NCBI RefSeq assembly: GCF_000477435.1
Contig: NC_022576.1
Span: 2,666,001-2,730,000 of the forward strand
DNA: 64,000 nt
Reading direction: 5' to 3'
Source: Candidatus Symbiobacter mobilis CR
Lineage (GTDB): Bacteria > Pseudomonadota > Gammaproteobacteria > Burkholderiales > Burkholderiaceae_C
Below, piece by piece: positions 14,438-60,448 of this stretch; position 1 is the stretch's first letter, and every line of letters starts with the position of its first letter. Both the position numbers and the translations under genes were made by a program. The notes under the pieces were generated by a model that saw nothing but the letters and a program-made list of their open reading frames with translations, was not told where the DNA came from and made no database searches.

Positions 14438-16783
14438 TATATTACAGACAACAGAGCTTCACATTCCTGTTCAATATCACGCATTAAAAGTCGCACTTTT
14501 TCCATTTCTCCGCTCTTTGCAGTAATCTCTATTTGATAAGCTGCATCATTTAGCCTGTGAGCAGCTAAATTTGCAGCAAGCCCTTTAATGGTATGTGATT
14601 GTCTCATAACTTCCTGAATATCATCATTATCTACGGCTGTTTTCAATATCTGTATATAATCGGGTAAATCTTTACGCAGGAATGAAAAAAGTTGACTCAT
14701 CACTTCCTCATCTCCTTCGACACGGTTCAAAAATTCTTCTCTGTCAAATATTTTTCTTAAGTCGGCATGTGGCGGAGTGATATATGTGTCAGAAGATTGG
14801 GACATAATACCAGAATACCTGTAAAGGACTTCACGTAATTTTTCAGGTTCAACCGGCTTGGAAATATAGTCATCCATTCCGGCAGCAATACACTCCTCGC
14901 GATCCTGCGGTGTTGCATTTGCGGTCATGGCAATAATAGGCACTTTGAACTGTTCACCCCTTATTATTCTTGTGGCTTCAAGTCCGTCCATCTCCGGCAT
15001 CTGAACATCCATCAGAATAATATCATACTCATTTTGACGAATTGCCTCTGTTGCCTTTTTACCATTCCGGACCGCATCTGCACAGATTCCCATTTTTTTT
15101 AGAATTATCAAGCCAAATCGCTGATTAAACTCATTATCTTCAGCAAGCAGAACGCGAAGACCTGCAAATTGTGAGTCTGATATTAAAGTCGTGTTATTAA
15201 GCGTGCAAACAGGGTCGAGCGTCTTGCTTCCTTGTTCAAATTTTGCAGTGAATCGGAATGTAGTGCCTTTTCCATATTCACTCTCAATTAAAATCCTGCC
15301 TCCCATAAGTTCGACAAGCCTCTTTGAAATCACAAGTCCAAGACCTGTTCCGCCATATTTTCGGGTTGTTGAAGAATCTGCCTGTGAAAAAGGTTGAAAC
15401 ATACGATCCAGACGGTCTTGCGGAATGCCGATGCCTGTGTCGGCAACGCTGAAGCTGAGAATAATCTGATTCTGTTCGTTAGTATTTTCATTCTCAACTG
15501 TTATGGTTATCCCACCTTTTGCTGTGAATTTGACAGAATTATTGAGCAGATTCAGGATAACCTGACGAAGACGGTTGCGGTCGCCTTTGAGAAAACGCGG
15601 AATATCAGGAGAGATATTACAGCTAAGAGTCAATCCCTTTTCAGAGGCTTTTATCTTCAGTATGTCAGTTATTTTACCAAGAAAATTTTTCAGATCAAAA
15701 TCAACTGATTCCAATTCAATTTTACCCGCCTCGATTTTTGAGAAATCAAGAATATCCTCGATAAGTGACAGAAGTATTTCAGAGGAGTGGGACAGAATAA
15801 GAGCATATTCCTGCTGTTCATCGGTAAGCGTAGTCTCTCTAATAAGTCTGCTCATGCCGATAATCACGTTCATCGGAGTTCTTATTTCATGGCTCATGTT
15901 GGCAAGAAATTCAGATTTGGCACGATTGGCAGATTCAGCAGCCTCTTTTGCCTCTTTCAGTTCTTCTATCATCCGCCTGCGCTCGGTTACATCAAGAATG
16001 AATCCGCTCCAAATTGCCGGTTCACCAGGCGGAGCAGGGTTAGGACGCGAGGAGAGCTGTATCCACTTAAAACAACCGGATTGTGTAAGGATTCGCACTT
16101 CAGTATCGAAAAATTTCCCTTCTCTGTTAGATGCAGCATCCTCATCATGCAGCCTTCGCAGATCATCGCTGTGAATCATCTTCCAAAATAAGTTCATATC
16201 AGATAAAAGTTCTTTTTCGTCCAATTCCAGGATTTCCCGACAGCTCGGTCCCACATAGAGGAATCTGCTGCTGCCGTCAGGATACAGAATGTAGTCATAC
16301 AGCATAACTGGCACACAGGATATAATCCGGTTATAATGTCTCTCGCTGTTAAGTAACGCTTCTTCTGCCCGCTTGCGGTCGGTGATATCGTGAATAATCG
16401 AAAACAGCAGTGTTTTTCCTTTAAAAATTATTGGGGAAGAATGAACCTCAACATAACGAATCTCTCCGTTTTTCAAGCGATGCTGAAAAGAAAACTCCCT
16501 GCACTCTTCGGTCATCATTTGCGTTATTGTCTGACGGATACATTCGGGCTGTAATTGATTAATTTTTCCGATCTCCATCTCTTCAAATTCCTGTATGGAA
16601 TATCCGTAATAGTTGGCAGCTGACTTATTTGCCTTGATAATATGTCCAGTCTCAGGATTAATAAGCAGCATTACAGCACTATGATGTTCAAACATGCCCC
16701 TAAACAGAGCTTCTTTTTGACAAATGGTATTTTCTGCTTTTTTACGTTCCAGAATTTCATTCTCAAGTTGAGCGTTCCGGAGT
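14437..16783 (-). pseudogene. Hybrid sensor histidine kinase, C-terminal 85 percent, cut from its receiver domain by IS200
   Basis: The frame holds two PAS domains (about residues 25-145 and 155-275), a HisKA domain with the phospho-accepting His in FLANMSHEIRTPMN, an HATPase domain (GIGIPQDRLDRMF, GTGLGLVISKRLV), a receiver with Asp in IILMDVQMPEMDG and a C-terminal Hpt domain (SHTIKGLAAN). Together with 17380-17789 it forms one 919-codon gene once the 596-bp IS200 element is removed. Base composition is much more AT-rich than the chromosome, so it was probably acquired by transfer. The first base of its TAA complement (14437) coincides with the last base of group II intron remnant 2. A shortened kinase may still be made from an ATG at 16794, created inside the IS. 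Confidence 0.88.
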
Positions 16784-17379
16784 TTTATTATCAATCACAA
16801 GGTTAAAACCACCGGCTTTAGCCGGTCAGCTTTAGCTACGCGAATAAGCCTCAAAAAAGGGGACGGCATGGATTATAGATACGGAAGTCATACAGTATTC
16901 CAGATAGAGTATCACTTTGTATGGGTTACGAAATACCGTTACAAGGTTCTGACGGGAGAAATTGGGGAGCGGGTCAGAGAGCTAGTGCGAGAAACATGTG
17001 AGGCATTTGAAATCAGGATTGTGAAGGGTGTGGTAAGTAAGGATCACGTGCATATCTTGGTAAGTTGCCCGCCGGTAATGGCACCAAGTGAGATTGTCCG
17101 GAGGCTGAAAGGGCGGACAGCAAGCAAGCTGTTGGAAGAGTTTCCACACATAAAAAAGAGATACTGGGGACGTCACTTTTGGGCGAGAGGATACTTTTGT
17201 GCAACTGTAGGGCAGATGACAGAAGAAATGATTAAGAGCTACTTAGAACACCATTTTGAACCGAGGCAGAACGATGATTTCAAGATGGAGCCGGGCTAAA
17301 ACGCGTCGTTCAGCCGACGCGTATCCGGACTTTCAGTCCGTAATATCAACCCACCAGCTTTAGCTGGTGGTTGTTGAGT
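16784..17379 (+). mobile_element. IS200-type insertion sequence, copy 1
   Basis: A 596-bp element with subterminal hairpins at both ends, ACCACCGGCTTTAGCCGGT on the left (near 16809) and CCACCAGCTTTAGCTGGTGG on the right (near 17352). It has no inverted terminal repeats and makes no target duplication, as expected for IS200/IS605 single-strand transposition. It matches 59854-60448 almost base for base. Removing it fuses the two kinase fragments in frame (QNAQ-LRNAQL). Confidence 0.92.
16868..17299 (+). CDS. tnpA: IS200-type Y1 HUH transposase TnpA
   Basis: This 143-residue single-strand transposase carries the HUH motif in KDHVHILVSC (His-Val-His) and a catalytic tyrosine probably in MIKSYLEHH. 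Length and the N-terminal FQIEYHFVWVTKYR segment match IS200-group TnpA. No TnpB gene is present. Unlike the copy at 59938, the A6 tract at the HIKKRYWGRHF position is intact, so this copy could be the source of the other or of a common ancestor. Confidence 0.93.
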   Translation: MDYRYGSHTVFQIEYHFVWVTKYRYKVLTGEIGERVRELVRETCEAFEIRIVKGVVSKDHVHILVSCPPVMAPSEIVRRLKGRTASKLLEEFPHIKKRYWGRHFWARGYFCATVGQMTEEMIKSYLEHHFEPRQNDDFKMEPG

Positions 17380-18066: not shown

Positions 18067-18076
18067 TATAACGTGC

Positions 18077-18162
18077 AGTATACACCGAGAGCGGTGTATA
18101 CTCAGATTGATCAGAAGGTGTATAGCACATCGATTTCCCATGAAATCAGTGCATATACACCC
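18077..18162. repeat. Tandem hairpins with four GGTGTATA units before the integrase remnant
   Basis: A perfect palindrome AGTATACACC-GAGAGC-GGTGTATACT spans 18077-18102. A second, longer imperfect hairpin follows: GGTGTATAGCAC at 18117, inner stem GATTTC-CCAT-GAAATC, then GTGCATATACACC ending near 18162. The octamer GGTGTATA or its complement thus occurs four times in about 85 bp, ending 16 bp before the integrase ATG. It may be an operator or a recombination site. Confidence 0.6.
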
Positions 18163-18177
18163 ATTTCACGCACTGGC

Positions 18178-18695
18178 ATGACAGTCGAAGCCCCCGCACC
18201 ACACACTCCATCGCCGCCCAAACTGCTGGATCAGTTGCGGGAGAAAATTCGCCTGCGGCACTATAGTATTCGTACCGAGACCCAGTACGTCCATTGGGTG
18301 AAGCATTGCATTCTGTTTGACAACAAACGTCACCCCAATCTCTTGGGCGCACCAGAAGTCGATGCCTATTTGACGCATTTGGCGGTGACAGGCAATGTTG
18401 CCGCATCGACGCAAAATCAGGCTTTGTCGGCTTTGCTTTTTTTGTACCGCAGCAGTGCTGGCGCAGGATTTGCCTTTGATGCAGGATATGGTGCGCGCCA
18501 AGCGTCCTGCGCGTTTGCCAGTGGTATTGACGCAGCGCGAGGTATTGGCTGTGCTGGATCGGATGGAGGGAACGCATGGACTGATGAACCGTACAAGAAC
18601 TATTGGGCCATGCCGATGTAGAAATCACCATGATCTATACCCATGTGCTCAATAAGGGGGGCAAGGGCGTTACTAGTCCGTTGGATTCGTTGTGA
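18178..18695 (+). pseudogene. Integron-integrase-like tyrosine recombinase, decayed
   Basis: The frame from ATG 18178 encodes the N-terminal core-binding domain (PPKLLDQLREKIRLRHYSIR, then VAASTQNQALSALLFLYR). It then shifts frame into DLPLMQDMVRAKRPARLPVV and LTQREVLAVLDRMEGTHGLM, loses most of the catalytic domain, and resumes in another frame at [20 protein letters not shown], ending at TGA 18693-18695. The terminal block carries the C-terminal catalytic His (LLGHA) and Tyr (IYTHVL); the first catalytic Arg and the HxxR box are missing. These signatures resemble integron-type integrases. It cannot be active. Confidence 0.85.
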
Positions 18696-18782: not shown

Positions 18783-19757
18783 TTACCGGATTCGCCCCGG
18801 CGCATGGCCCATACGTAGCGTGGGGGGGTGGAGGATGGCGCGGTGTTGGGCGATCCAGGCTGCGCCTTGGGTGTGGGCCAGGTATAGGGCGCGGTAGTTG
18901 CCCCAGCAGGCGGTGGCCCAGCGCGATTGCTGCGTTACGGCCATGTCTTTGAGTTCGCGCAACATGCGCACGTGGGGGTTTGGAGGAGGCTCTTCGCTGG
19001 ACGGCAGTGCGAGCTTGCAGGCCCGCAGGCCGTTGGCGGCATCTTCCAAAAAAGGGATCAGCAGCAGGGTGGTCAGCACGTCCAGATAGCGGGTGCGGTC
19101 AGCGGGCGGCGTTTCGTCGAAAAGCGCCACGCGGGCCGTTTTGCCCAGTTTGGCGCGGGCGTGTGCCAGCACGTCGTCCAGAAAAGCGACAAAGCGCGGC
19201 CAGAACGCCGCCCGTGCGATGAGGATATGCCCGCTGACGAAGCAGGCCGAGTGCGCGACGGTGTCCGGGCTGTCCCCATCCAGCCCCGCTGCGTCAAGCA
19301 CCGCGCGTGCCAGCGTTCCGCAGTGGGGGTGCGTGTGTTCGGCGTAGAGCCAGGGGTTGTGGTACAGCGCTTCGACCTCGGCAGGGGCTTGGCAGAAGCA
19401 AACGTCGGCTTCGCCCGCACCGGCGCACTCCTGCACCGCGTTCGCCAGCGTGGCGGCGTTCCATCCGGTTTGCGTCCAACCTTCGGTGCCGACCAGCCCG
19501 TACCAGTCAGCGCGGGGCTTGCGTTGGGTGGCGTGGGCCAGGGCACGCAGCGCACCCAATGTCGCGCAAGCATCCTCGGCGGGGAGGGCAGGCAAGGCAG
19601 TGCAGCCCGGCGCCACGGTGCCAGGGTAGGCGTACCACCGTATCTGGGGCGCGGAAGGTGTGGAGGAGGATGGCGCGTGGGGGGAGGATGCAGCGCGTTG
19701 CGACGGGGCAGCGCGCCGGGCGGATGCTTTGGGGCTTGGGGCTTTGCGTGTCGCCAT
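18783..19757 (-). CDS. Hypothetical protein, last gene of the type I secretion operon
   Basis: I do not recognise this 324-residue protein. A basic, Ala/Ser/Pro-rich N-terminus (about 1-38) precedes a globular region rich in Trp, Cys and His (RWYAYPGTV, DWYGLVGTEGWTQTGW, YHNPWLYAEHTHPH, HSACFVSGHILIARAAFWPR). No signal peptide or membrane segment is seen. It starts 38 bp after the GT41 gene and shares its strand, so co-transcription is likely. Given its neighbour it could be a second glycosyltransferase or a modification partner, but that rests on context only. Confidence 0.7.
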   Translation of the reverse strand: MATRKAPSPKASARRAAPSQRAASSPHAPSSSTPSAPQIRWYAYPGTVAPGCTALPALPAEDACATLGALRALAHATQRKPRADWYGLVGTEGWTQTGWNAATLANAVQECAGAGEADVCFCQAPAEVEALYHNPWLYAEHTHPHCGTLARAVLDAAGLDGDSPDTVAHSACFVSGHILIARAAFWPRFVAFLDDVLAHARAKLGKTARVALFDETPPADRTRYLDVLTTLLLIPFLEDAANGLRACKLALPSSEEPPPNPHVRMLRELKDMAVTQQSRWATACWGNYRALYLAHTQGAAWIAQHRAILHPPTLRMGHAPGRIR

Positions 19758-19795
19758 CGTGGTGCTTCCTCATGATGCTTCTTCATGATGCTTTT

Positions 19796-21460
19796 TCAGC
19801 GACCCGCCAAATGCTGCAATAGCTCTGCGGCCAGGTCGGCATGGCGGGTTCGGGCCGATTCGGCGCGGAGCAATGCGTGGCCGGTGCGTTGGGGGTGGGG
19901 CAGGGTGGCCAGTCGGTCAATGCGGCATTGCGCCAGCGTCAGCCCGGCGTAGCGGCAGTGTGAGAGGGTGTGCCGTTCACAAAACAGCGTGCCGAGTTTG
20001 GTGTAGACCGGGACGCCCAGCGAGAGCGCTTCGACTGTCGTCAGCCCCCCGCTGTACGGCCAGGTGTCGACGACGGCGTCGAGTTGGGCGACGGCTTCGA
20101 GGTATTCGCGGTGGCTGGAAGGGGTCAGGAATTCCAGCAAGACGCCGGGCAATGCATCGCAAATCCGTTGCCGAACGGGTGTGTGGGCGTACCGCTGGTC
20201 GATGCATCGCACGACGATGGGCGCAGTCTCCGCACCCTGCCAGCGTGCCAGGCACGTTGTCAGTTCGGCGAGAAAGGCACGCGAGAGCTTGGCCGGGTTG
20301 GCGATGACGCCGACGACGGTGGCGCGGCGGCTGCCATCGTCGGCGATGGGGGAGGGCATGTACGGGGGCGGGGTGTAGGTCACGTACCCCGAGCGCAGGC
20401 GGATCAGCGGTTCGCTGTAGAGCGCATCGCTGCCACGGGGGGTTTGGTAGCGGTCGGTCAGAAAGCCGTCGAAGCTGCGCAGGCCGGTGGTGACGGATTG
20501 CCCGCCGACCCACTTGAGCATCCGCCGCACGGGTTTGGATGCCAGCGCGTGCAGCGCGGCAGGGTCCATCCATCCGCCCAGGTCGATCAGCGCGTCGAGG
20601 TTCTGGCGCTCCAATTCTTTGGCCAACGGTGCGCTGGCCAGCGCGGCGACGTCGTTCCATTCGCTGGCGATGGCGCGGAAGCGTTGCGTGGCCCAGTCTT
20701 CCTTGTTGCCACGGCGTAGTACGACTAGATTGACGGCGCTGGCAAGCTGCTCCAGCGCACCGAACGCAAAAAAATACACGGGCGAAGCGCAAAACTGCGG
20801 CGACAGCAACCCCACGCGCAACCGCGCAGCAGTACGGGTGCTGCGGGTGCGGCCGCCGCTGCGGGCCGGTGGAGCGGGTTGTGACGCCGGTTGTAGAGCG
20901 GTTGGTGGCGTTGGCTGCGGGGCGGGCATGTGCGTGCGGCCGAAGTCGAGGAACGCGGCGTTGAGGTCGCTTGCGCTGCCGTCGCGGTCGTAAAGCTGGG
21001 TGATCAGGGTGGTGATCAGCGCGTCAGCGCCGTGGCGGGGGTCGCCCAGCAAGGGTTGGACGAGCGCACGGGCTTGCCGGGGGTCGCAGAGCAGTTGCAG
21101 GGTCAGCCGCGCCAGTTCGACGCGCACTTCGGCGTTCTGCGGTAGGCGCTGGTGCAGGGTGCGCAGCACGTCGAGCGCGCCGGGTTTGTCCTGCGCCAGG
21201 ATCAGCGCTTTGGCCAGCACCAGGGCCGATTGCCACAGGCCCGGCTGTCGTTGCAGAGCACGGCGAGCGTGGGCGATGGCCTCCGGCGGATGTTGCAAGG
21301 CCAGGTGGCACAGCGCCAGGTTGTGCGCGACGACGGCGTCGTCTCGCAGTGCCCGCGCCTGTTCATAGCAATGCAGCGCCTCAGCCCAGCGCTCCGCATT
21401 GCGCAGGGCATCGGCCTGTTGCAACCAGCGCAGCAGGGGGGGCGAAGGGGCGGCATTCAT
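19796..21460 (-). CDS. TPR-containing SPINDLY-like O-GlcNAc transferase (GT41)
   Basis: The 554-residue product starts with tetratricopeptide helices (about 10-150: WAEALHCYEQARALRDDAVV, PEAIAHARRALQRQPG), has a Pro-rich linker, then a GT41-type catalytic domain: LRVGLLSPQFCASPVYFF, DALIDLGGWMDPAAL, VVDTWPYSGGLTTVEALSLGVPV and TLFCERHTLSHCRYAGL. Family members transfer N-acetylglucosamine or another sugar to Ser/Thr of proteins. The chosen ATG at 21460 lies 17 bp after the TolC-type gene. In this operon the likely acceptor is the exported repeat protein, which is inference. Confidence 0.87.
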   Translation of the reverse strand: MNAAPSPPLLRWLQQADALRNAERWAEALHCYEQARALRDDAVVAHNLALCHLALQHPPEAIAHARRALQRQPGLWQSALVLAKALILAQDKPGALDVLRTLHQRLPQNAEVRVELARLTLQLLCDPRQARALVQPLLGDPRHGADALITTLITQLYDRDGSASDLNAAFLDFGRTHMPAPQPTPPTALQPASQPAPPARSGGRTRSTRTAARLRVGLLSPQFCASPVYFFAFGALEQLASAVNLVVLRRGNKEDWATQRFRAIASEWNDVAALASAPLAKELERQNLDALIDLGGWMDPAALHALASKPVRRMLKWVGGQSVTTGLRSFDGFLTDRYQTPRGSDALYSEPLIRLRSGYVTYTPPPYMPSPIADDGSRRATVVGVIANPAKLSRAFLAELTTCLARWQGAETAPIVVRCIDQRYAHTPVRQRICDALPGVLLEFLTPSSHREYLEAVAQLDAVVDTWPYSGGLTTVEALSLGVPVYTKLGTLFCERHTLSHCRYAGLTLAQCRIDRLATLPHPQRTGHALLRAESARTRHADLAAELLQHLAGR

Positions 21461-21477
21461 GGGCTTGCCTACAAAAA

Positions 21478-22728
21478 CTATGTCGCGCCGAACAGCAGTG
21501 CCTGCACTCCTTCCAGCGCGGCGTCGAGGTCGGTGGCGCACTGGAGTTGCAGATCAAGCCACTTTTCTCCCAGGGTGAGCAGCGCGGTGAGGTACTCGGT
21601 GCGCGTGCGTTGCAGCGCCTGCACGGCGTGGAGCACGGCGATGCGCGTGCGTACCCCGCCAGCAAAACTCTGTTCATTGGCGTACAGGCTTTGCTGCGCG
21701 GCGTGGATCGCTTCGCGGCGGATGGCGATTTCGGCCAGCGAGGACTGCACTTCCGCGTAGAGCCGCTGTACGTCGAGCTGGACCTGCGTGCGTGCGCCGC
21801 GTTCGAGTTCGCGCAGACGTTGCACTTCGATTCCGGCGGACTGGATGCGCAGGTAGCCGCTCATGTCCACCGGCACTTCCCAACGCAGCACCAGGCCGGA
21901 ATTCGTCGTGCTCGTTCCGCTCGATGTCGAATGTTGAAAGACGGCGTTGAGCGAAGGCAGGTACGCCGCCTTGGCCCGCTTGCGCGAGATGTCGCCCAGC
22001 GTCACAGCCAGTACGCGGGTGCGCAGCGTAGGGTGCGCATCGGCCTGCGCCAGCAGCGTGTCCAGTGGGGGCAGCGTCAGCGCAATGGCCCTGTCGTGCA
22101 ACGGGTAGGCGTTTGCAGCAGGTGGGGCGCCGACGATGCTTTGGTACTGGCGGGTGGCGGCTTCGAGCGCGGCGCGCAAGGTGTGCTCTTGGGAACGCGC
22201 CTGGGCCAGCAGGACTTGCGCGTCGAGGACGTCGGTAACCGTCCCCCGGCCCAGTTCGTAGGTACGCTGGGCGGCCTGCATCTGTGCCTGGACGGCTTCG
22301 AGCGTCTTGGTGTTGAGTACGCGCTGCTCGCGCGCGGCGCACAGGGCGCGAACGGCTTGGAACAGCCTGCGCGCCAAGTCCTGGCGGCTTTGGGTGTGCT
22401 GGTGCTCCGCCATCGCCGCGCGCGGCTCTTTTTCCTGCAAGGCAAGCCAACGATCCGCATGCAACACCGGCTGGCTCAGGCTGAAAGTCTGCCGGTCGGT
22501 GCCTTCGTTCGGGAGCTGCGTGCGGCTGAGCGAAGCCTGCGGGTAGTAGGACATCCCCGCAGTGGCGGCCTGCATCTGTGCTGTTTGATATTCGGCCAGC
22601 GATGCAGCAAAGGTGGCATCGTTGTTTTGGGCGGTGTGAAAGTCCGCAAGCAGGCCGCTGGCCTGGGCGGTACACCATGCTAGTGCGCAGACGGCGATGC
22701 ACGCCCGGCGCAGCAGGAACGCATTCAT
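21478..22728 (-). CDS. TolC-family outer-membrane secretion protein
   Basis: The 416-residue protein begins with a signal peptide (about residues 1-23, ALAWCTAQA) followed by the long helical hairpins of the outer-membrane efflux family (ALEAVQAQMQAAQRTYELGR, VTDVLDAQVLLAQARSQ). It should form the trimeric outer-membrane channel of the type I exporter encoded with it. The ATG overlaps the HlyD-type stop by 4 bp. It is slightly short for the family but shows no break. Confidence 0.9.
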   Translation of the reverse strand: MNAFLLRRACIAVCALAWCTAQASGLLADFHTAQNNDATFAASLAEYQTAQMQAATAGMSYYPQASLSRTQLPNEGTDRQTFSLSQPVLHADRWLALQEKEPRAAMAEHQHTQSRQDLARRLFQAVRALCAAREQRVLNTKTLEAVQAQMQAAQRTYELGRGTVTDVLDAQVLLAQARSQEHTLRAALEAATRQYQSIVGAPPAANAYPLHDRAIALTLPPLDTLLAQADAHPTLRTRVLAVTLGDISRKRAKAAYLPSLNAVFQHSTSSGTSTTNSGLVLRWEVPVDMSGYLRIQSAGIEVQRLRELERGARTQVQLDVQRLYAEVQSSLAEIAIRREAIHAAQQSLYANEQSFAGGVRTRIAVLHAVQALQRTRTEYLTALLTLGEKWLDLQLQCATDLDAALEGVQALLFGAT

Positions 22729-24137
22729 TCCTTGAAAGACCGGGCCAGCCGGTCGGTCAGGGGTTTGAGCAGATAGCTCAGGAAGCTGCGTTCCCCGGAT
22801 TTGACGATGACTTCGACGGGCATGCCGGGCAGGATGTGGTGCCCTGCCAGGCGATGTTGTGCATCGGGGGTTGTTTCGACGTGGATCAGGTAGTACTCCT
22901 CCGGGTACTCCGGTGGCTGGGGGGGCAGGCGATCCGCGCCGACGAGACGCACCACGCCTTCGACGACCGGCGTCGTGATGCGCTGGAAGGCGGAAAAGCG
23001 CAGATCGGCAGTCATCCCCACGCGCACCTTGTCGATGAGGTGGGGCGGCACTGCGGCTTCGGCGATCAGGGTCTGCCCGGCGGGGACGATTTCCATCAGC
23101 ACTTGCCCTGCCGTGATGACGCCGCCGACGGTGTGTACCTTCAGCCCGACGACCGTTCCGCTGGCGGGGGCCTTGAGGTTGCTGTGGCTGCGGTCGAAGC
23201 GTAACGAGGCCACGCGGGCGCGGACGGTTTCGCGCTGCTTTTGCGTTTCGGTGATCTGCGCGTCGACGTCCTTGAGGAAGGCTGCGCGCAGCTTGCTCAG
23301 TTCAAGTTGGTTCGAGGCAATGGCGGTGCGGATCGTTCCGATTTCCGCGACGAGCGTGGCCAAGGTGGCTTGCGCTTCGGAGAGCGAGCGCTCGGCATCG
23401 CGCGCAGTGCTGCGGGGGACGTAGCCGTCCTTCGCAAGCTGTTGCAGGTTGCGGGTTTCTTCGGCCAGCGGGGCCAGTTGTTCCTGGCGCAGGCGCAGTA
23501 CGGTTTCCTGCGCCTGGAGCTGCTGGAGCAGGCCGCGATGTTTTTCGTGGAGGATGTCGGTCTGGTCACGCATTTCAGCGCGGCGCGAGCGGAACAGCGC
23601 GAATTGCAGGCGTTGTGCTTCGGCCACCTGGTCGTGTTGACCGAAGGACCGCAAATCGGTGTCCCACACGATGGTGTCCGATCCCACCTGCTCAGCCAGT
23701 AGCCGCGAATACACCGCTGCGGCGTTGATGTATTCGTACTCTGCCTGTCGCAGGTTCGCATCGATGTTGAGGGGGTTGATGCGCAGCACCACGTCGCCTT
23801 GGCGCACCTGTGCTCCTTCGCGAACCAGAATTTCCTCGACTACCCCGCCGGAGGGATGCTGCACGGCCTTGCGGCTGCCGAGGACGACGACCTTGCCGTT
23901 GACGACGACGCCGGAATCGAGCGGGGCGACGATGGCCCATACCAGGAAGATGGCAAAAGTGACGACGACGACCTTGCCAGCCAGTTTTTTGATCCCTGCT
24001 TCTTCAATGCGAACGGGCGCGATGCCGTCTTGCGTCACCCCTTCTGGAACATAGGGATTGAAGGATTCCGCCCACCGCCCCAGGCGGTCGATGCCCGCGT
24101 CGAGGGCGTTGTGTACACGCTCGAAGGGGTTTTTCAT
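22725..24137 (-). CDS. Type I secretion periplasmic adaptor (HlyD family)
   Basis: This 470-residue membrane-fusion protein has a cytoplasmic N-terminus, one transmembrane helix (about residues 54-71, KVVVVTFAIFLVWAIVAPL), a lipoyl/barrel-sandwich region (GSRKAVQHPSGGVVEEILV), a long periplasmic coiled coil (about 150-290) and a second lipoyl half (LKAPASGTVVGLKVHTVGG). It bridges the ABC exporter and the TolC-type channel. The ATG at 24137 overlaps the ABC stop as ATGA; longer starts would lie inside the ABC gene. Confidence 0.93.
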   Translation of the reverse strand: MKNPFERVHNALDAGIDRLGRWAESFNPYVPEGVTQDGIAPVRIEEAGIKKLAGKVVVVTFAIFLVWAIVAPLDSGVVVNGKVVVLGSRKAVQHPSGGVVEEILVREGAQVRQGDVVLRINPLNIDANLRQAEYEYINAAAVYSRLLAEQVGSDTIVWDTDLRSFGQHDQVAEAQRLQFALFRSRRAEMRDQTDILHEKHRGLLQQLQAQETVLRLRQEQLAPLAEETRNLQQLAKDGYVPRSTARDAERSLSEAQATLATLVAEIGTIRTAIASNQLELSKLRAAFLKDVDAQITETQKQRETVRARVASLRFDRSHSNLKAPASGTVVGLKVHTVGGVITAGQVLMEIVPAGQTLIAEAAVPPHLIDKVRVGMTADLRFSAFQRITTPVVEGVVRLVGADRLPPQPPEYPEEYYLIHVETTPDAQHRLAGHHILPGMPVEVIVKSGERSFLSYLLKPLTDRLARSFKE

Positions 24138-25882
24138 GCTGGGGCCTTCTTGAGGGCGGGTGCGGCACCTTGTTGGGCATGCTGAAGCTGGTCCAACACT
24201 TCCTTGAGCGGGCCGAAGGCGACTTGCTGCCCTTCCCGCAAGACGAGCGCCAGGTCTGCCAATCCGACGAGTTTGGGGCGGTGGCTGCTGAATACGACGA
24301 CGGCCTTGCGTTCCTTGAGCTGGGCCAGCAGGGTGGCGAGGGCGCGTTCGCCGTCGTCGTCGAGGTTGGCGTTGGGTTCGTCGAAGACGACAAGGACGGG
24401 GTCTCCATACAGTGCGCGGGCAATGGCCAGCCGCTGCTTTTGCCCGCCGGTGATGGGGTGGCCGCTTTCGCCGATGGGGGTGTCGTAGCCTTGGGGAAGG
24501 CCGAGGATGGTCTCGTGCAGGCCGATGGCCTGCGCGGCGCGAACGACCTTGTCGGGATCGACATCGCCCAGCCGTGCGATGTTGTCGGCGACGGTACCTT
24601 CGAAGAGCGCGATGTCTTGCGGAACATAGCCGATATGGGTGCCCAGGTCGTTGCGTACCCACGCGCCGATGTCCGCCCCATCAAGGCGCACGCTGCCATG
24701 CGTGGGTTCCCAGATGCCGACGAGCAGCCGCAATAGCGAGGTTTTGCCCGCAGCACTGGGGCCTAGCACCGCGACGATCTGCCCAGGTTGTGCCCCCCAG
24801 TGCAGTGCGCTCAGAACGGGCCTGCGTGCGGTGGCGGGCTGCCAAACCATTTCTCGCACTTCGAGCACGCCGGTAGGGGCAGGCAGGGGCATGCGCTGTC
24901 GCAGGGCTTCATCTTCGGCAACCATTGCATTGAGCCGTTCCAACGATTGCCGCGCCGCTTCGATGGCAGGCCAGCTTCCCATGACCTGCTTGATCGGGCT
25001 GATGGCGCGGGAGAGCAGAAAACTCGCTGCGATGACCATCCCCCCGGTGATCAACCCTTCAATCGCCAAAAAGCACGCCAGCGCCATTTGCAGCGAAGGC
25101 AGCGCGTGCGCGATATATCCCGTCGCGCCGCCAAGCAGCCCGGCGGATTCGCTGGCATTGACTTGCAGCGACAAGAACCGTTGGTGCTCCTGGTACCAGC
25201 GTTTGCGGATGGCCGACTGCATCCCCAGCGCCAGCGCGGTGTCGGACTGGCGCAGGCTTTGCGCTGCGACACGCTTGGAACGCGCGGAGGCATCGTTCGC
25301 TTCACGCAATGCGGGCGCAGTGACCCGGCGCGTAGAGTACGCAGCCAACCATTGCACGAGCGTCGCTACGAAGATGAAGATCGCCAGGTAAGGGTGGAAT
25401 GCCCAGCCGATGACGATGAAAAACACGGCATACGGCGCGCTCATCAGCGCGAGTACTGCGGGGCCAGTAAGGAATTGGCGCAATTGCACGACATCGCTAA
25501 GCACTTGGTGTACGTCCACATCCTTGCGTGCGACGTAGCGGCGGAAGGAGGTGTCGAAGACCCGCGCAGCAATATCCCAGTCGATGCGCAGGGAAATGCG
25601 CACCATCATCCGTGACCGCACCCATTCCAGCCCGGACCAGAAGCCGTAGACCAGCATCACCAGCGCAGTTAGCGAAACGAGGGTGACAACACTACGGCTG
25701 CTGATGACCCGGTCGAACACGTTCCACATGAACACGATCGGGGTGATCGACAGCGCTTCGATGACGAAAGTGAGTACGGCGACGAAAACAAAAGACCGCT
25801 TGCATTGCCGCAGCAGGTCGGACACCGGGCGGGGTGCCTGCGCGTTGGCAGTGCCCAGAAAACGGTCGAGCAAGCCTGGCAT
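24134..25882 (-). CDS. Type I secretion ABC exporter (PrtD-like)
   Basis: The 582-residue protein fuses a six-helix membrane domain (about 1-310) to an ATPase domain. It has Walker A GPSAAGKTS, a degenerate signature ITGGQKQRL, Walker B VLVVFDEPNANLD and the H-loop in FSSHRP. There is no N-terminal C39 peptidase or CLD-like domain, so it resembles PrtD/RsaD exporters that read an uncleaved C-terminal signal. It is first in a five-gene run (exporter, adaptor, channel, GT41, unknown) and lies directly downstream of the repeat protein gene, its presumed substrate. Confidence 0.92.
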   Translation of the reverse strand: MPGLLDRFLGTANAQAPRPVSDLLRQCKRSFVFVAVLTFVIEALSITPIVFMWNVFDRVISSRSVVTLVSLTALVMLVYGFWSGLEWVRSRMMVRISLRIDWDIAARVFDTSFRRYVARKDVDVHQVLSDVVQLRQFLTGPAVLALMSAPYAVFFIVIGWAFHPYLAIFIFVATLVQWLAAYSTRRVTAPALREANDASARSKRVAAQSLRQSDTALALGMQSAIRKRWYQEHQRFLSLQVNASESAGLLGGATGYIAHALPSLQMALACFLAIEGLITGGMVIAASFLLSRAISPIKQVMGSWPAIEAARQSLERLNAMVAEDEALRQRMPLPAPTGVLEVREMVWQPATARRPVLSALHWGAQPGQIVAVLGPSAAGKTSLLRLLVGIWEPTHGSVRLDGADIGAWVRNDLGTHIGYVPQDIALFEGTVADNIARLGDVDPDKVVRAAQAIGLHETILGLPQGYDTPIGESGHPITGGQKQRLAIARALYGDPVLVVFDEPNANLDDDGERALATLLAQLKERKAVVVFSSHRPKLVGLADLALVLREGQQVAFGPLKEVLDQLQHAQQGAAPALKKAPA

Positions 25883-25912
25883 AGGGCGACGGAGTGGAGA
25901 AAAAAAACGCGG

Positions 25913-25939
25913 AAAAAAAAGGCGACCGCCAGGGTCGCC
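25913..25939 (-). terminator. Rho-independent terminator between repeat protein and exporter genes
   Basis: Reading leftward, GGCGACCCTGGCGGTCGCC (25939-25921) forms a strong hairpin followed at once by eight T (25920-25913). It sits 87 bp after the repeat-protein stop and about 30 bp before the exporter ATG. Partial read-through here would give much more substrate mRNA than exporter mRNA. Confidence 0.85.
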
Positions 25940-26026
25940 TTGTCGTAAGCCACGAGGGCCAAGTCGGCCGGGGGAGGTTTCGTTGACCTCGTGGACTTCG
26001 TAGACCGCAGGGGCCGCAGAGGCCGG

Positions 26027-27775
26027 TTAGGCCTTGAGATCGAGTGGATCGTCCCCGTCTGCGCCTTGCAGGTAGTCAATACCCAGGAGCTGGATGTCGT
26101 CGAGAACGTCGGCACTGAGGGATGCGACGTCGTTGTTGCCAACATGCAGCGTGACTTCGTCGGCTTCGTCGAAGACGGGAGCTTCCGAAGCGGCAAACTT
26201 CGCAAGGACGTCTTGGATCGCAGCTTCGAGATCGTCAGTCTCCATCTCGTCGGCCACATTGCCGCCGACTTGCAGGGCGACTACGTCTTCCCCGTCGGTG
26301 ACATGGACGGAGTCGATGCCCAAGTGGCCCAGGTCTGCCAGGGAGGGATCGCCGTCGCCCAGCAAAGCGGTAGCAGCCACATCGGCGTCCAGGTCCAGCG
26401 TAACCATCGAACCCGCCGCAAAGTCAAGGCCCGCAGTGATGAGCGCGGTAACGTCAGCAAGGTCGAGCACAGCATCATCGGTAGCGCAGAGGTGGTCGAT
26501 GCCGCTGGCAACGAGTTTCTCTGCTGCTGCCCCGGCTGTCGAGAACTGCGCCACATTGGCAGCAGGCAGATGCAGCGTGACGTCCAGAGAATCAGCGAAT
26601 GTCACGAGCGTGGTGCTGGCTGCAAATTGCGCAATGCTGACGCCCAAACCACCGGCGATATCCACCTGCATTGCTGGGTTGTCGGTAGAAACGACATGGT
26701 CGATGCCCAGTCCAGACAGGTTGGAAAGCGAGGTGTTGAGTGCAATGGTGCCATCGGCATCGGACATATCGACGGTGACATCCAGCGCAGAAGCAAAGCT
26801 GGGGGAATCAAAATTCCCCGCAACGGCGCCAAACCCTCCATCCACCACCACGTCTTGACCGATACCACCCGTGACATGGTCGATGCCCATGCCAGCCAAG
26901 CCGGAAAGCGACGAGTTGAGCTGGACGGTGCCATCTACGTCGCCATCCAAGCCAGCATCGGCCTGGGTCAACTGCAAGGTGACGTCCAACGCATCGTTGA
27001 AATCCAGCCCGAGGCTATTCAAGGTGGCGGAGCCGATGTTGCCGACACCACCCTGGATGACGAAATCATCTCCAGCATTGCCAGTGACTGGATTGGTGCT
27101 CATGGCAGCCAACTGGACTAGCGATTGAGAAACATTGGTAGGCCCGGTAGGCGTAGGTTCGACGGGAGCAGGATCGTCATCCGACCCACCAGCCGCAGCA
27201 GCCACAGCCAAGCCTACGCCGCCGATCACGGCAAACGTTCCCAGCGACATCCCCACTACCGCAGATGCTGCCGCAATGCCTGTGCTGGCCACGGCCGCGC
27301 CAGCGCTGGCTGCCACGGAACCCGCTGCTGCTGCGGCTTCGCCAGCTACGCCTGCAGCGGTTTCCACGCCGCTGGCTACTGCCCCGGTTCCGGAAGAGGC
27401 ACTGCCACTGGCAGCCCCGGCTTCCGCGCCTGTGGGCGCAACGGTGCCTGGTGTTGCCACAGGAGTAGCAGGAGTAGCAGGAGCAACAGGACTCTGCATT
27501 TGCGCCATAGTCTGGGCATGCTGGCCTGTTGCGGAGACGTCACGCGAATGGGTGACGAATGCACCGTGGGATTCCGCAGCAGTGGAAGCACCAGATTCGA
27601 TAGGGGCAGAAGGGTCCAACCCTGCAACCCCTTGGCTTGGGGAAACACCCAAGCCCGAGGAAGAGGAAGCGACGACTTGATCGCCCAGAAGGGCAGCCAT
27701 GCCTACAGCCAGGGCGGAGGAAGCTCCTTTCTTGGCAGAAGCAGCCTTGTTTTTGCGGGAGGGTTGACTCGACAT
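26027..27775 (-). CDS. Acidic repeat protein, probable type I secretion substrate
   Basis: The 582-residue protein has four parts. The N-terminus is a short basic segment (about 1-20) and a linker. Next comes an Ala/Gly-rich stretch ending in a hydrophobic helix (VVGMSLGTFAVIGGVGLAVA, about residue 190). A Pro/Asp hinge follows (GGSDDDPAPVEPTPTGPT). The rest is about five degenerate repeats built on LDVTL...GLGIDHV...D...F and finishing LLGIDYLQGADGDDPLDL. There is no Sec signal peptide and no RTX nonapeptide. Acidic repeats, the Gly/Ala helix plus hinge and the adjacent exporter suggest a surface protein or adhesin exported by type I secretion. The ATG at 27775 is preceded by GAAGAAAGG; the frame is open further upstream but enters recQ. 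Confidence 0.7.
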   Translation of the reverse strand: MSSQPSRKNKAASAKKGASSALAVGMAALLGDQVVASSSSGLGVSPSQGVAGLDPSAPIESGASTAAESHGAFVTHSRDVSATGQHAQTMAQMQSPVAPATPATPVATPGTVAPTGAEAGAASGSASSGTGAVASGVETAAGVAGEAAAAAGSVAASAGAAVASTGIAAASAVVGMSLGTFAVIGGVGLAVAAAAGGSDDDPAPVEPTPTGPTNVSQSLVQLAAMSTNPVTGNAGDDFVIQGGVGNIGSATLNSLGLDFNDALDVTLQLTQADAGLDGDVDGTVQLNSSLSGLAGMGIDHVTGGIGQDVVVDGGFGAVAGNFDSPSFASALDVTVDMSDADGTIALNTSLSNLSGLGIDHVVSTDNPAMQVDIAGGLGVSIAQFAASTTLVTFADSLDVTLHLPAANVAQFSTAGAAAEKLVASGIDHLCATDDAVLDLADVTALITAGLDFAAGSMVTLDLDADVAATALLGDGDPSLADLGHLGIDSVHVTDGEDVVALQVGGNVADEMETDDLEAAIQDVLAKFAASEAPVFDEADEVTLHVGNNDVASLSADVLDDIQLLGIDYLQGADGDDPLDLKA

Positions 27776-59840: not shown

Positions 59841-59853
59841 GTAGTGCCCACAT

Positions 59854-60448
59854 TTTATTATCAATCACAAGGTTAAAACCACCGGCTTTAGCCGGTCAGC
59901 TTTAGCTACGCGAATAAGCCTCAAAAAAGGGGACGGCATGGATTATAGATACGGAAGTCATACAGTATTCCAGATAGAGTATCACTTTGTATGGGTTACG
60001 AAATACCGTTACAAGGTTCTGACGGGAGAAATTGGGGAGCGGGTCAGAGAGCTAGTGCGAGAAACATGTGAGGCATTTGAAATCAGGATTGTGAAGGGTG
60101 TGGTAAGTAAGGATCACGTGCATATCTTGGTAAGTTGCCCGCCGGTAATGGCACCAAGTGAGATTGTCCGGAGGCTGAAAGGGCGGACAGCAAGCAAGCT
60201 GTTGGAAGAGTTTCCACACATAAAAAGAGATACTGGGGACGTCACTTTTGGGCGAGAGGATACTTTTGTGCAACTGTAGGGCAGATGACAGAAGAAATGA
60301 TTAAGAGCTACTTAGAACACCATTTTGAACCGAGGCAGAACGATGATTTCAAGATGGAGCCGGGCTAAAACGCGTCGTTCAGCCGACGCGTATCCGGACT
60401 TTCAGTCCGTAATATCAACCCACCAGCTTTAGCTGGTGGTTGTTGAGT
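59854..60448 (+). mobile_element. IS200-type insertion sequence, copy 2 (defective)
   Basis: This element is nearly identical to 16784-17379 including both subterminal hairpins, but 1 bp shorter because an A6 run (17154 region) is A5 here (near 60220). It lies just upstream of the methyltransferase start. It could still be moved in trans by the intact TnpA of copy 1. Confidence 0.92.
59938..60368 (+). pseudogene. tnpA: IS200 transposase tnpA, frameshifted
   Basis: The frame matches copy 1 through EEFPHIK and then shifts because one A is missing, ending early at 60279 (113 residues). The HUH motif HVHILV is kept but the catalytic tyrosine helix (MIKSYLEHH) is out of frame, so the product cannot cleave DNA. 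Confidence 0.92.

What the first reader, a model, noticed from the sequence alone, without database searches (positions are those of the whole stretch)
18783..27775. Type I secretion operon with its own GT41 glycosyltransferase and a novel repeat substrate
Seen: an acidic repeat protein, then ABC exporter, HlyD-type adaptor, TolC-type channel, SPINDLY-like O-GlcNAc transferase and an unknown protein, on one strand with gaps of 38 bp or less or 4-bp overlaps after the terminator. Known: GT41 enzymes glycosylate Ser/Thr of proteins; PrtD-type exporters move unfolded substrates with C-terminal signals. Inference: the repeat protein is O-glycosylated in the cytoplasm and exported to the surface, with the unknown last gene as a second modifying factor. 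I do not know a described system with exactly this set.
Basis: partly seen in the sequence, partly recalled or inferred. Interest (0 to 1): 0.75.

Follow-up and report, generated by a model that had tools for sequence, protein, structure and literature searches.

The report
Secretion operon with odd sugar-transferase module
The central bacterium of a two-species phototrophic consortium carries a surface-protein export operon together with three conserved genes, one of them an unusual relative of the O-GlcNAc/O-fucose transferases, that probably decorate the exported protein with sugar before it leaves the cell.

Summary
In detail: substrate, PrtD-type ABC, HlyD, TolC, a TPR/GT41-like protein and a 324-aa unknown lie on one strand at 18783-27775. 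The genome length (2,991,840 bp) equals that published for 'Candidatus Symbiobacter mobilis'. The gene order recurs in three MAGs and, with one swap, in another genus. GT41-like, 324-aa and 214-aa genes form a module present in 9 of 9 genomes with a strong relative. An exporter of one clade is adjacent in 5 and 10-20 kb away in 3; the ninth contig is too short. The GT is not an ordinary OGT: all nine form one deep GT41 clade (100/100) with Ser where SPINDLY needs His495, but keep the donor lysine. Best reading: a dedicated cytoplasmic glycosylation module for a type I-exported, non-RTX surface protein, working like FlmG or NGT/HMW1C. Catalysis, donor, linkage and surface location are untested. 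Six literature searches showed no described system with this set.

The parts
26027..27775 (-). proposed exported substrate, 582 aa, acidic, GIDH-type repeats in the C-terminal half, S/T/P/A-rich stretch at residues 96-135; LLGID motif near the C-terminus
25919..25941 (-). terminator-like stem-loop plus T tract between substrate and exporter genes
24134..25882 (-). PrtD-type type I secretion ABC exporter
   Evidence: TIGR01842 587.9 bits; clade of eight module-linked exporters
22725..24137 (-). HlyD-type periplasmic adaptor
   Evidence: TIGR01843 341 bits
21478..22728 (-). TolC-type outer-membrane channel
   Evidence: Pfam OEP 114.9 bits; TIGR01844 below cut-off
19796..21460 (-). TPR plus divergent GT41-clade glycosyltransferase-like protein (Ser226 in place of SPINDLY His495)
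18783..19757 (-). 324-aa member of an unnamed family whose distant kin lie beside glycosyltransferase genes; module gene

Best explanation
It is a type I secretion operon for one acidic, non-RTX surface protein, coupled to a three-gene cytoplasmic glycosylation module (divergent TPR-GT41, 324-aa protein, 214-aa protein). Proposed mechanism: the TPR part of the GT41-like protein binds the unfolded substrate; its GT-B domain transfers a first sugar from a nucleotide-sugar donor to Ser/Thr (perhaps in the S/T/P/A-rich stretch, residues about 96-135); the 214-aa and 324-aa proteins extend or adjust the glycan; the modified chain is then exported through ABC-HlyD-TolC to the cell surface. In the consortium it could mediate contact with the epibionts. 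Shown: gene content, order, conservation, membership of the GT41 superfamily, that the three module genes go together, and that one exporter clade goes with them. Inferred: catalysis, substrate choice, sugar, timing, surface location, role in the consortium.
For: Whole operon in L052 and L054, and from ABC onward in L053 whose contig starts 80 bp before ABC; in L133 (another genus) exporter, channel, GT, 214-aa, 324-aa and a substrate-like gene. The three module genes occur in 5 of 5 strong relatives outside the genus. Exporter of the same clade (ABC 52-55% identical, HlyD 48-55%) about 20, 15 and 10 kb from the module in L134, L136 and L137; L135's contig (11 kb) is too short to tell; the eight module-linked exporters are one side of a branch with 100/100 support. 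Profile match to TtOGT and SPINDLY. Lys and Tyr matching SPINDLY K665 and Y744 kept in 9 of 9 (roles: passages). dN/dS L044 vs L053: 0.19 GT, 0.14 unknown, 0.09 214-aa. Distant kin of the 324-aa protein sit beside GT2/GT4 genes in 3 of 5 loci examined. Precedents: FlmG (PMC7591256, passages) and A. pleuropneumoniae ngt in an operon with a second transferase agt (PMC6318927, abstract).
Against: SPINDLY H495A and H495F are dead (PMC9715652 passages) and 9 of 9 module GTs have Ser there; the SPINDLY S496 and T748 columns are Pro and Leu in 9 of 9, though both letters also occur in other GT41 rows. In four of nine genomes the module is not next to a T1SS in the first stretches fetched. Several polysaccharide-type genes lie around those modules. 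The AlphaFold models were too poor to use (mean pLDDT 49.4 and 51.6). No glycoproteomic data.
Confidence: 0.64

Rival explanations
1. The module makes or modifies a separate surface glycan (LPS, capsule, exopolysaccharide) and only neighbours a T1SS.
For: In L134-L137 the module lies among GT2, GT1-group, GT61 or GDP-sugar genes, with the T1SS 10-20 kb away in three of them.
Against: TPR-GT41 proteins of known function act on proteins (SPINDLY, FlmG); in 5 of 9 genomes the GT gene follows the channel gene (gaps of 17-163 bp in window, L052, L053, L054); 8 of 8 assessable genomes have an exporter of one clade in the neighbourhood.
Confidence: 0.15
2. The GT41-like protein is catalytically dead and serves as a TPR chaperone or targeting factor that keeps the substrate unfolded for the exporter.
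For: Loss of the essential His position and of the GHT motif in 9 of 9; branch of 1.82 changes per column to the other GT41 rows.
Against: Donor-site Lys and Tyr invariant in nine, low dN/dS; 4 of 47 other GT41 rows with a residue there also have Ser, so it need not mean inactivity; a mere chaperone would not need two further conserved genes.
Confidence: 0.14
3. The T1SS exports a substrate encoded elsewhere and the 582-aa protein is a cytoplasmic neighbour.
For: A terminator-like site separates the 582-aa gene from the exporter; no RTX array.
Against: A related protein precedes the exporter in L052 and L054, the latter with cadherin repeats, and a weaker relative in L133; the C-terminal domain was not found away from the operon (1 of 399 order genomes, the own one).
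Confidence: 0.06

Closest known systems
FlmG (Caulobacter flagellin O-glycosyltransferase; PMC7591256, passages)
   Same: soluble protein with a substrate-binding TPR domain and a GT domain that modifies an exported surface protein in the cytoplasm
   Different: FlmG serves flagellins and uses pseudaminic acid; here a type I exporter, two further conserved genes, donor unknown
NGT/AGT and HMW1C-HMW1 (soluble N-glycosyltransferase with adhesin; PMC6318927 abstract, rest recalled)
   Same: cytoplasmic enzyme (GT41 by PMC9715652, passages) modifying a surface adhesin; ngt has a second transferase gene in its operon
   Different: type V secretion (recalled) and Asn-linked glucose; the GT here belongs to a different, diverged GT41 clade
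SPINDLY O-fucosyltransferase / OGT / TtOGT (5djs)
   Same: TPR plus GT domain, equivalents of K665 and Y744 kept
   Different: His495 replaced by Ser in 9 of 9, GHT replaced by GW(M/T)D, one-residue insertion in KWVGGQ, CERH motif
PrtD/HlyD/TolC type I secretion with large adhesins (two other PrtD loci of this genome)
   Same: same exporter families; cadherin repeats in the L054 substrate
   Different: own exporter clade, smaller non-RTX substrate, linked module

Membership tests
GT41 (OGT/SPINDLY) | sequence similarity of GT domain to solved GT41 members | tested here: met
   profile A8: 5djs_A E 3.8e-37, 7y4i SPINDLY E 2.6e-26, XcOGT E 1.2e-14
GT41 (OGT/SPINDLY) | passes Pfam PF13844 curated cut-off | tested here: not met
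   12.1 bits (window) and 16.1 bits (L044) against cut-off 25
GT41 (OGT/SPINDLY) | N-terminal TPRs | tested here: met
   TPR_2 35.7 bits, cut-off 27
GT41 (OGT/SPINDLY) | active-site His (SPINDLY H495) | tested here: not met
   Ser in 9 of 9 module rows; His in 40 of 47 other rows with a residue there
GT41 (OGT/SPINDLY) | donor-phosphate Lys (SPINDLY K665) | tested here: met
   Lys in 9 of 9 module rows
GT41 (OGT/SPINDLY) | transfer of sugar to protein | not testable with these tools
   needs biochemistry
Type I secretion system (PrtD type) | ABC exporter over TIGR01842 cut-off | tested here: met
   587.9 against 510.15 bits
Type I secretion system (PrtD type) | HlyD adaptor over TIGR01843 cut-off | tested here: met
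   341 against 208.65 bits
Type I secretion system (PrtD type) | TolC-family channel | tested here: inconclusive
   Pfam OEP 114.9 bits met; TIGR01844 117.6 under cut-off 225.15
Type I secretion system (PrtD type) | substrate with C-terminal export signal | tested here: inconclusive
   LLGID motif near the C-terminus of four substrates; export untested
RTX proteins | arrays of GGxGxDxUx nonapeptides | tested here: not met
   1 match in window substrate, 0 in L052 and in the L044 part
FlmG-type flagellin glycosyltransferase | acts on flagellin | not tested
   no flagellin gene was noticed by eye among the cluster ORFs; not searched

The most novel reading that the evidence does not exclude
A new class of protein-glycosylation machinery: a module built on a GT41 clade that has lost the canonical active-site His and gained its own invariant motifs, works with two unnamed partner proteins and co-evolves with one type I exporter clade, so that surface proteins are glycosylated in the cytoplasm and then exported by type I secretion; in this organism for contact between the two partners of a bacterial consortium.
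Probability: 0.33. Interest if true: 0.78.

Novelty: new variant of a known kind. Interest (0 to 1): 0.63.

Why it matters
If true it ties GT41-type glycosylation to type I secretion, a pairing that none of the papers listed in my searches describes as a natural system, defines a GT41 subfamily with a different active site, and gives two unnamed protein families a testable role. In 'Ca. S. mobilis' it would supply a candidate glycosylated surface protein for the contact between the central rod and its green sulfur epibionts, for which Liu et al. point mainly to epibiont giant proteins and cell-envelope islands (PMC4053972, section 6).

Tried and rejected
Structure prediction of the 324-aa protein and of the GT (4-row alignments) gave mean pLDDT 49.4 and 51.6; Foldseek with the first gave no match at E 0.001 or better: no fold claim is made. 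A suspected link of the 324-aa family to DUF4422 failed (hhalign probability 0.27%, two-row DUF4422 profile). My first assignment of Ser226 to human OGT His498 was wrong; PMC9715652 shows that the column is SPINDLY H495 / human OGT H558. The G003 hit of the substrate search (E 2e-4) lies antisense inside a 1177-aa ORF and was dropped. That GT41 genes in general sit beside T1SS was rejected: in 20 regions fetched, of 44 matches at E 1e-30 or better outside the own genome, 0 had HlyD, TolC, 324-aa, 214-aa or coiled-coil hits and 3 had only ABC ATPase-type hits; several of the 20 are cut by contig ends. A search of the 5.8-billion protein database could not be made.

Full report
What is there. 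The six genes are real and in the stated order. Substrate: 582 aa, pI 4.05, 97 Ser+Thr, one Cys, no Trp, 72.5% S/T/P/A in residues 96-135, no Pfam or NCBIfam match, one RTX-like nonapeptide. Exporter genes are of PrtD, HlyD and TolC type. The last two genes are a TPR-GT41-like protein and a 324-aa protein with no family match.

Where it comes from. The window lies at 2,666,001-2,730,000 of a single 2,991,840-base contig. Liu et al. 2013 (PMC4053972; outline, sections 5 and 6, and passages seen) give exactly 2,991,840 bp for the circular chromosome of 'Candidatus Symbiobacter mobilis' (CP004885). That identity of length is the basis for the name. 'Secretion' occurs 0 times in the main text and no word begins with 'glycosyl'.

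The operon elsewhere. The one scan of genome contigs, with the GT pair, found 3 loci: L052 (Comamonadaceae MAG), L053 and L054 (beta-proteobacterial MAGs; L054 is the same stretch as L044/G094). They carry ABC, HlyD, TolC, GT, 324-aa, 214-aa and a coiled-coil gene in that order. The substrate gene precedes ABC in L052 and L054; L053's contig begins 80 bp before ABC. Identity to the window: ABC 74-76%, HlyD 67-76%, TolC 47-53%, GT 57-58%, 324-aa 44-47% and substrate 42-49% over the aligned parts. The L044/L054 substrate, cut by the contig end, has cadherin repeats (Pfam 131.9 bits). Within the genus the set is rare: substrate kin in 2 of 89 genomes (own, G094; a third hit was spurious), 214-aa gene in 3 of 89.

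A split operon. The window has no 214-aa or coiled-coil gene. The genome does: 214-aa (60% to L053), a 1058-aa coiled-coil protein (41-45%) and a 479-aa protein (33%) lie in the same order at about 2,567,133-2,572,455, some 112 kb from the window operon. The break falls between the 324-aa and 214-aa genes. No convincing shared repeat was found at the two edges (best 15 and 26 bases). The window's 324-aa protein ends 12 alignment columns before its three closest relatives.

The module. A search of 379 genomes of the family with the 324-aa alignment gave 17 genomes: own, 5 strong (E 4e-54 to 3.5e-75) and 11 weak. The 5 strong ones also have the GT41-like and 214-aa genes: L133 within a T1SS operon (ABC 55%, HlyD 51%, TolC 37-38%; order GT, 214-aa, 324-aa); L135, L136 and L137 as 324-aa, GT, 214-aa side by side; L134 with about 6 kb between the 324-aa gene and the other two. 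With the own genome, L052, L053 and L054 this makes 9 of 9 genomes with a strong relative; in 8 the three genes lie near each other, in the own genome they are split.

T1SS and module. In the first stretches fetched for L134-L137 no T1SS gene was detected. Wider flanks showed ABC, HlyD and TolC genes together about 20 kb (L134/L141), 15 kb (L136/L142) and 10 kb (L137/L145) from the module, ABC 52-55% and HlyD 48-55% identical to the window's; other PrtD exporters of the genus are at most 41%. L135's contig is 11 kb long and cannot be judged. A tree of 24 exporter rows puts the eight module-linked ones on one side of a branch with 100/100 support. So 8 of 8 assessable genomes have an exporter of this clade adjacent or within about 20 kb of a module gene; in the own genome the 214-aa gene is the exception at 112 kb. 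Between and around lie GT2, GT1-group and GT61 genes, GDP-mannose/GDP-fucose genes (L134), and in L137 a 1547-aa filamentous-haemagglutinin-family protein (DUF3739, E 2.6e-32) and a GlcNAc transferase (PF11397).

Weak relatives. In the order search (399 genomes) only 6 genomes besides the own one had weak relatives of the 324-aa protein. Of 5 loci inspected, three have GT2 or GT4 genes next to it (L046, L048, L049), L047 is fused to TPRs and a stretch that looks GT2-like by eye, L050 shows only an oxidoreductase-like ORF by eye. In 12 weak loci of 1.7-3.5 kb no GT or 214-aa module gene was detected; one (L132, G643) has a distant HlyD (22%) and, further off, ABC (26%) nearby.

The GT. With four operon sequences the profile reaches TtOGT and SPINDLY clearly. 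In a tree of 56 GT41 domains (5 of 61 rows without a full domain left out) the nine module GTs are one side of a branch with 100/100 support, 1.82 changes per column long; a tree with four operon rows agreed. Nine of nine have S-P-V at the SPINDLY H495-S496 site, GGW(M/T)D, KWVGGQ, N-P-x-K and CERH. His stands at the H495 column in 26 of 27 comparable rows of the genus (own genome included) and in 14 of 20 order rows; 4 of those 20 have Ser, so Ser is unusual, not unique. PMC9715652 (passages) reports H495A and H495F dead, K665 essential, S496A, T748A and Y744A weak, and proposes the donor phosphate as base with H495 structural. K665 and Y744 equivalents are kept here. Donor binding is plausible, catalysis open. 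Between L044 and L053 dN/dS is 0.03-0.19 for the five genes compared.

Mechanism and rivals. The best reading is cytoplasmic glycosylation of the T1SS substrate before export. FlmG does this for flagellin, its TPR part binding the substrate, and the pseudaminic acid pathway is needed for efficient export (PMC7591256 passages). In A. pleuropneumoniae the soluble ngt shares an operon with a second transferase (PMC6318927 abstract), a parallel to GT plus 214-aa. Four substrates share an L-L-G-I-D motif near the C-terminus, a candidate export signal; the gene before the L142 exporter has a related LLGLG, that before L141 no clear one, and none was found before L145. The substrate domain was not found away from this operon (1 of 399 order genomes), but its relatives before L141, L142 and L145 were not detected by tblastn, so the substrate varies more than the module.

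Known or new. Six literature searches for GT41 or glycosylation together with type I secretion (listings read) returned no paper on such a natural pairing; one search listed no paper holding both 'type I secretion' and a GT41 term. Two listed papers come near: PMC6318927 glycosylates fragments of Apx toxins with ngt/agt by engineering (abstract), and PMC10225607 on Rickettsiales T1SS cites titles on glycosylated Ehrlichia repeat proteins (passages in its reference list), so a glycosylated T1SS substrate as such may not be new. The library holds open-licence papers only. Parts are known kinds; the combination, the GT41 clade and the partner families make it a new variant.

Noticed in passing
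window 16783-17379 and 59853-60448: Two nearly identical copies (99.8% over 597 bp) of an IS-like element with a 143-aa ORF (16868-17299) that looks like an IS200/IS605-type TnpA (recalled, not tested), near the cut end of the operon.
   Followed up: partly
window 18073-18621: ORF whose N-terminal part resembles a tyrosine recombinase/integron integrase (by eye), between the operon end and the IS-like element.
   Followed up: no
L115 (G053 contig 246) 1552-13122: A different neighbourhood in the same genus: tandem PrtD exporters with HlyD (and a TolC-like gene by eye) about 3.5 kb from a GT41 gene over the Pfam cut-off (203.6 bits), with GT2, Mur-ligase and GT4 genes.
   Followed up: partly
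L118 (genome 722000-741000) and L117 (genome 2514000-2533000): Two further PrtD exporters of the same genome, next to a 2720-aa ORF similar to the L044 substrate and to an ORF of at least 2157 aa.
   Followed up: partly
L137 15800-17464: Fusion of a PF11397 GlcNAc transferase (255.6 bits) and a methyltransferase domain just downstream of the module.
   Followed up: no
genome 1286957-1288006, 1536284-1537324, 2544180-2545238: Three other GT41 loci of the same genome that pass the Pfam cut-off.
   Followed up: partly
L132 and L146 (G643 contig 25): A weak relative of the 324-aa protein near distant HlyD (22%) and ABC (26%) genes, perhaps another exporter-linked version.
   Followed up: no
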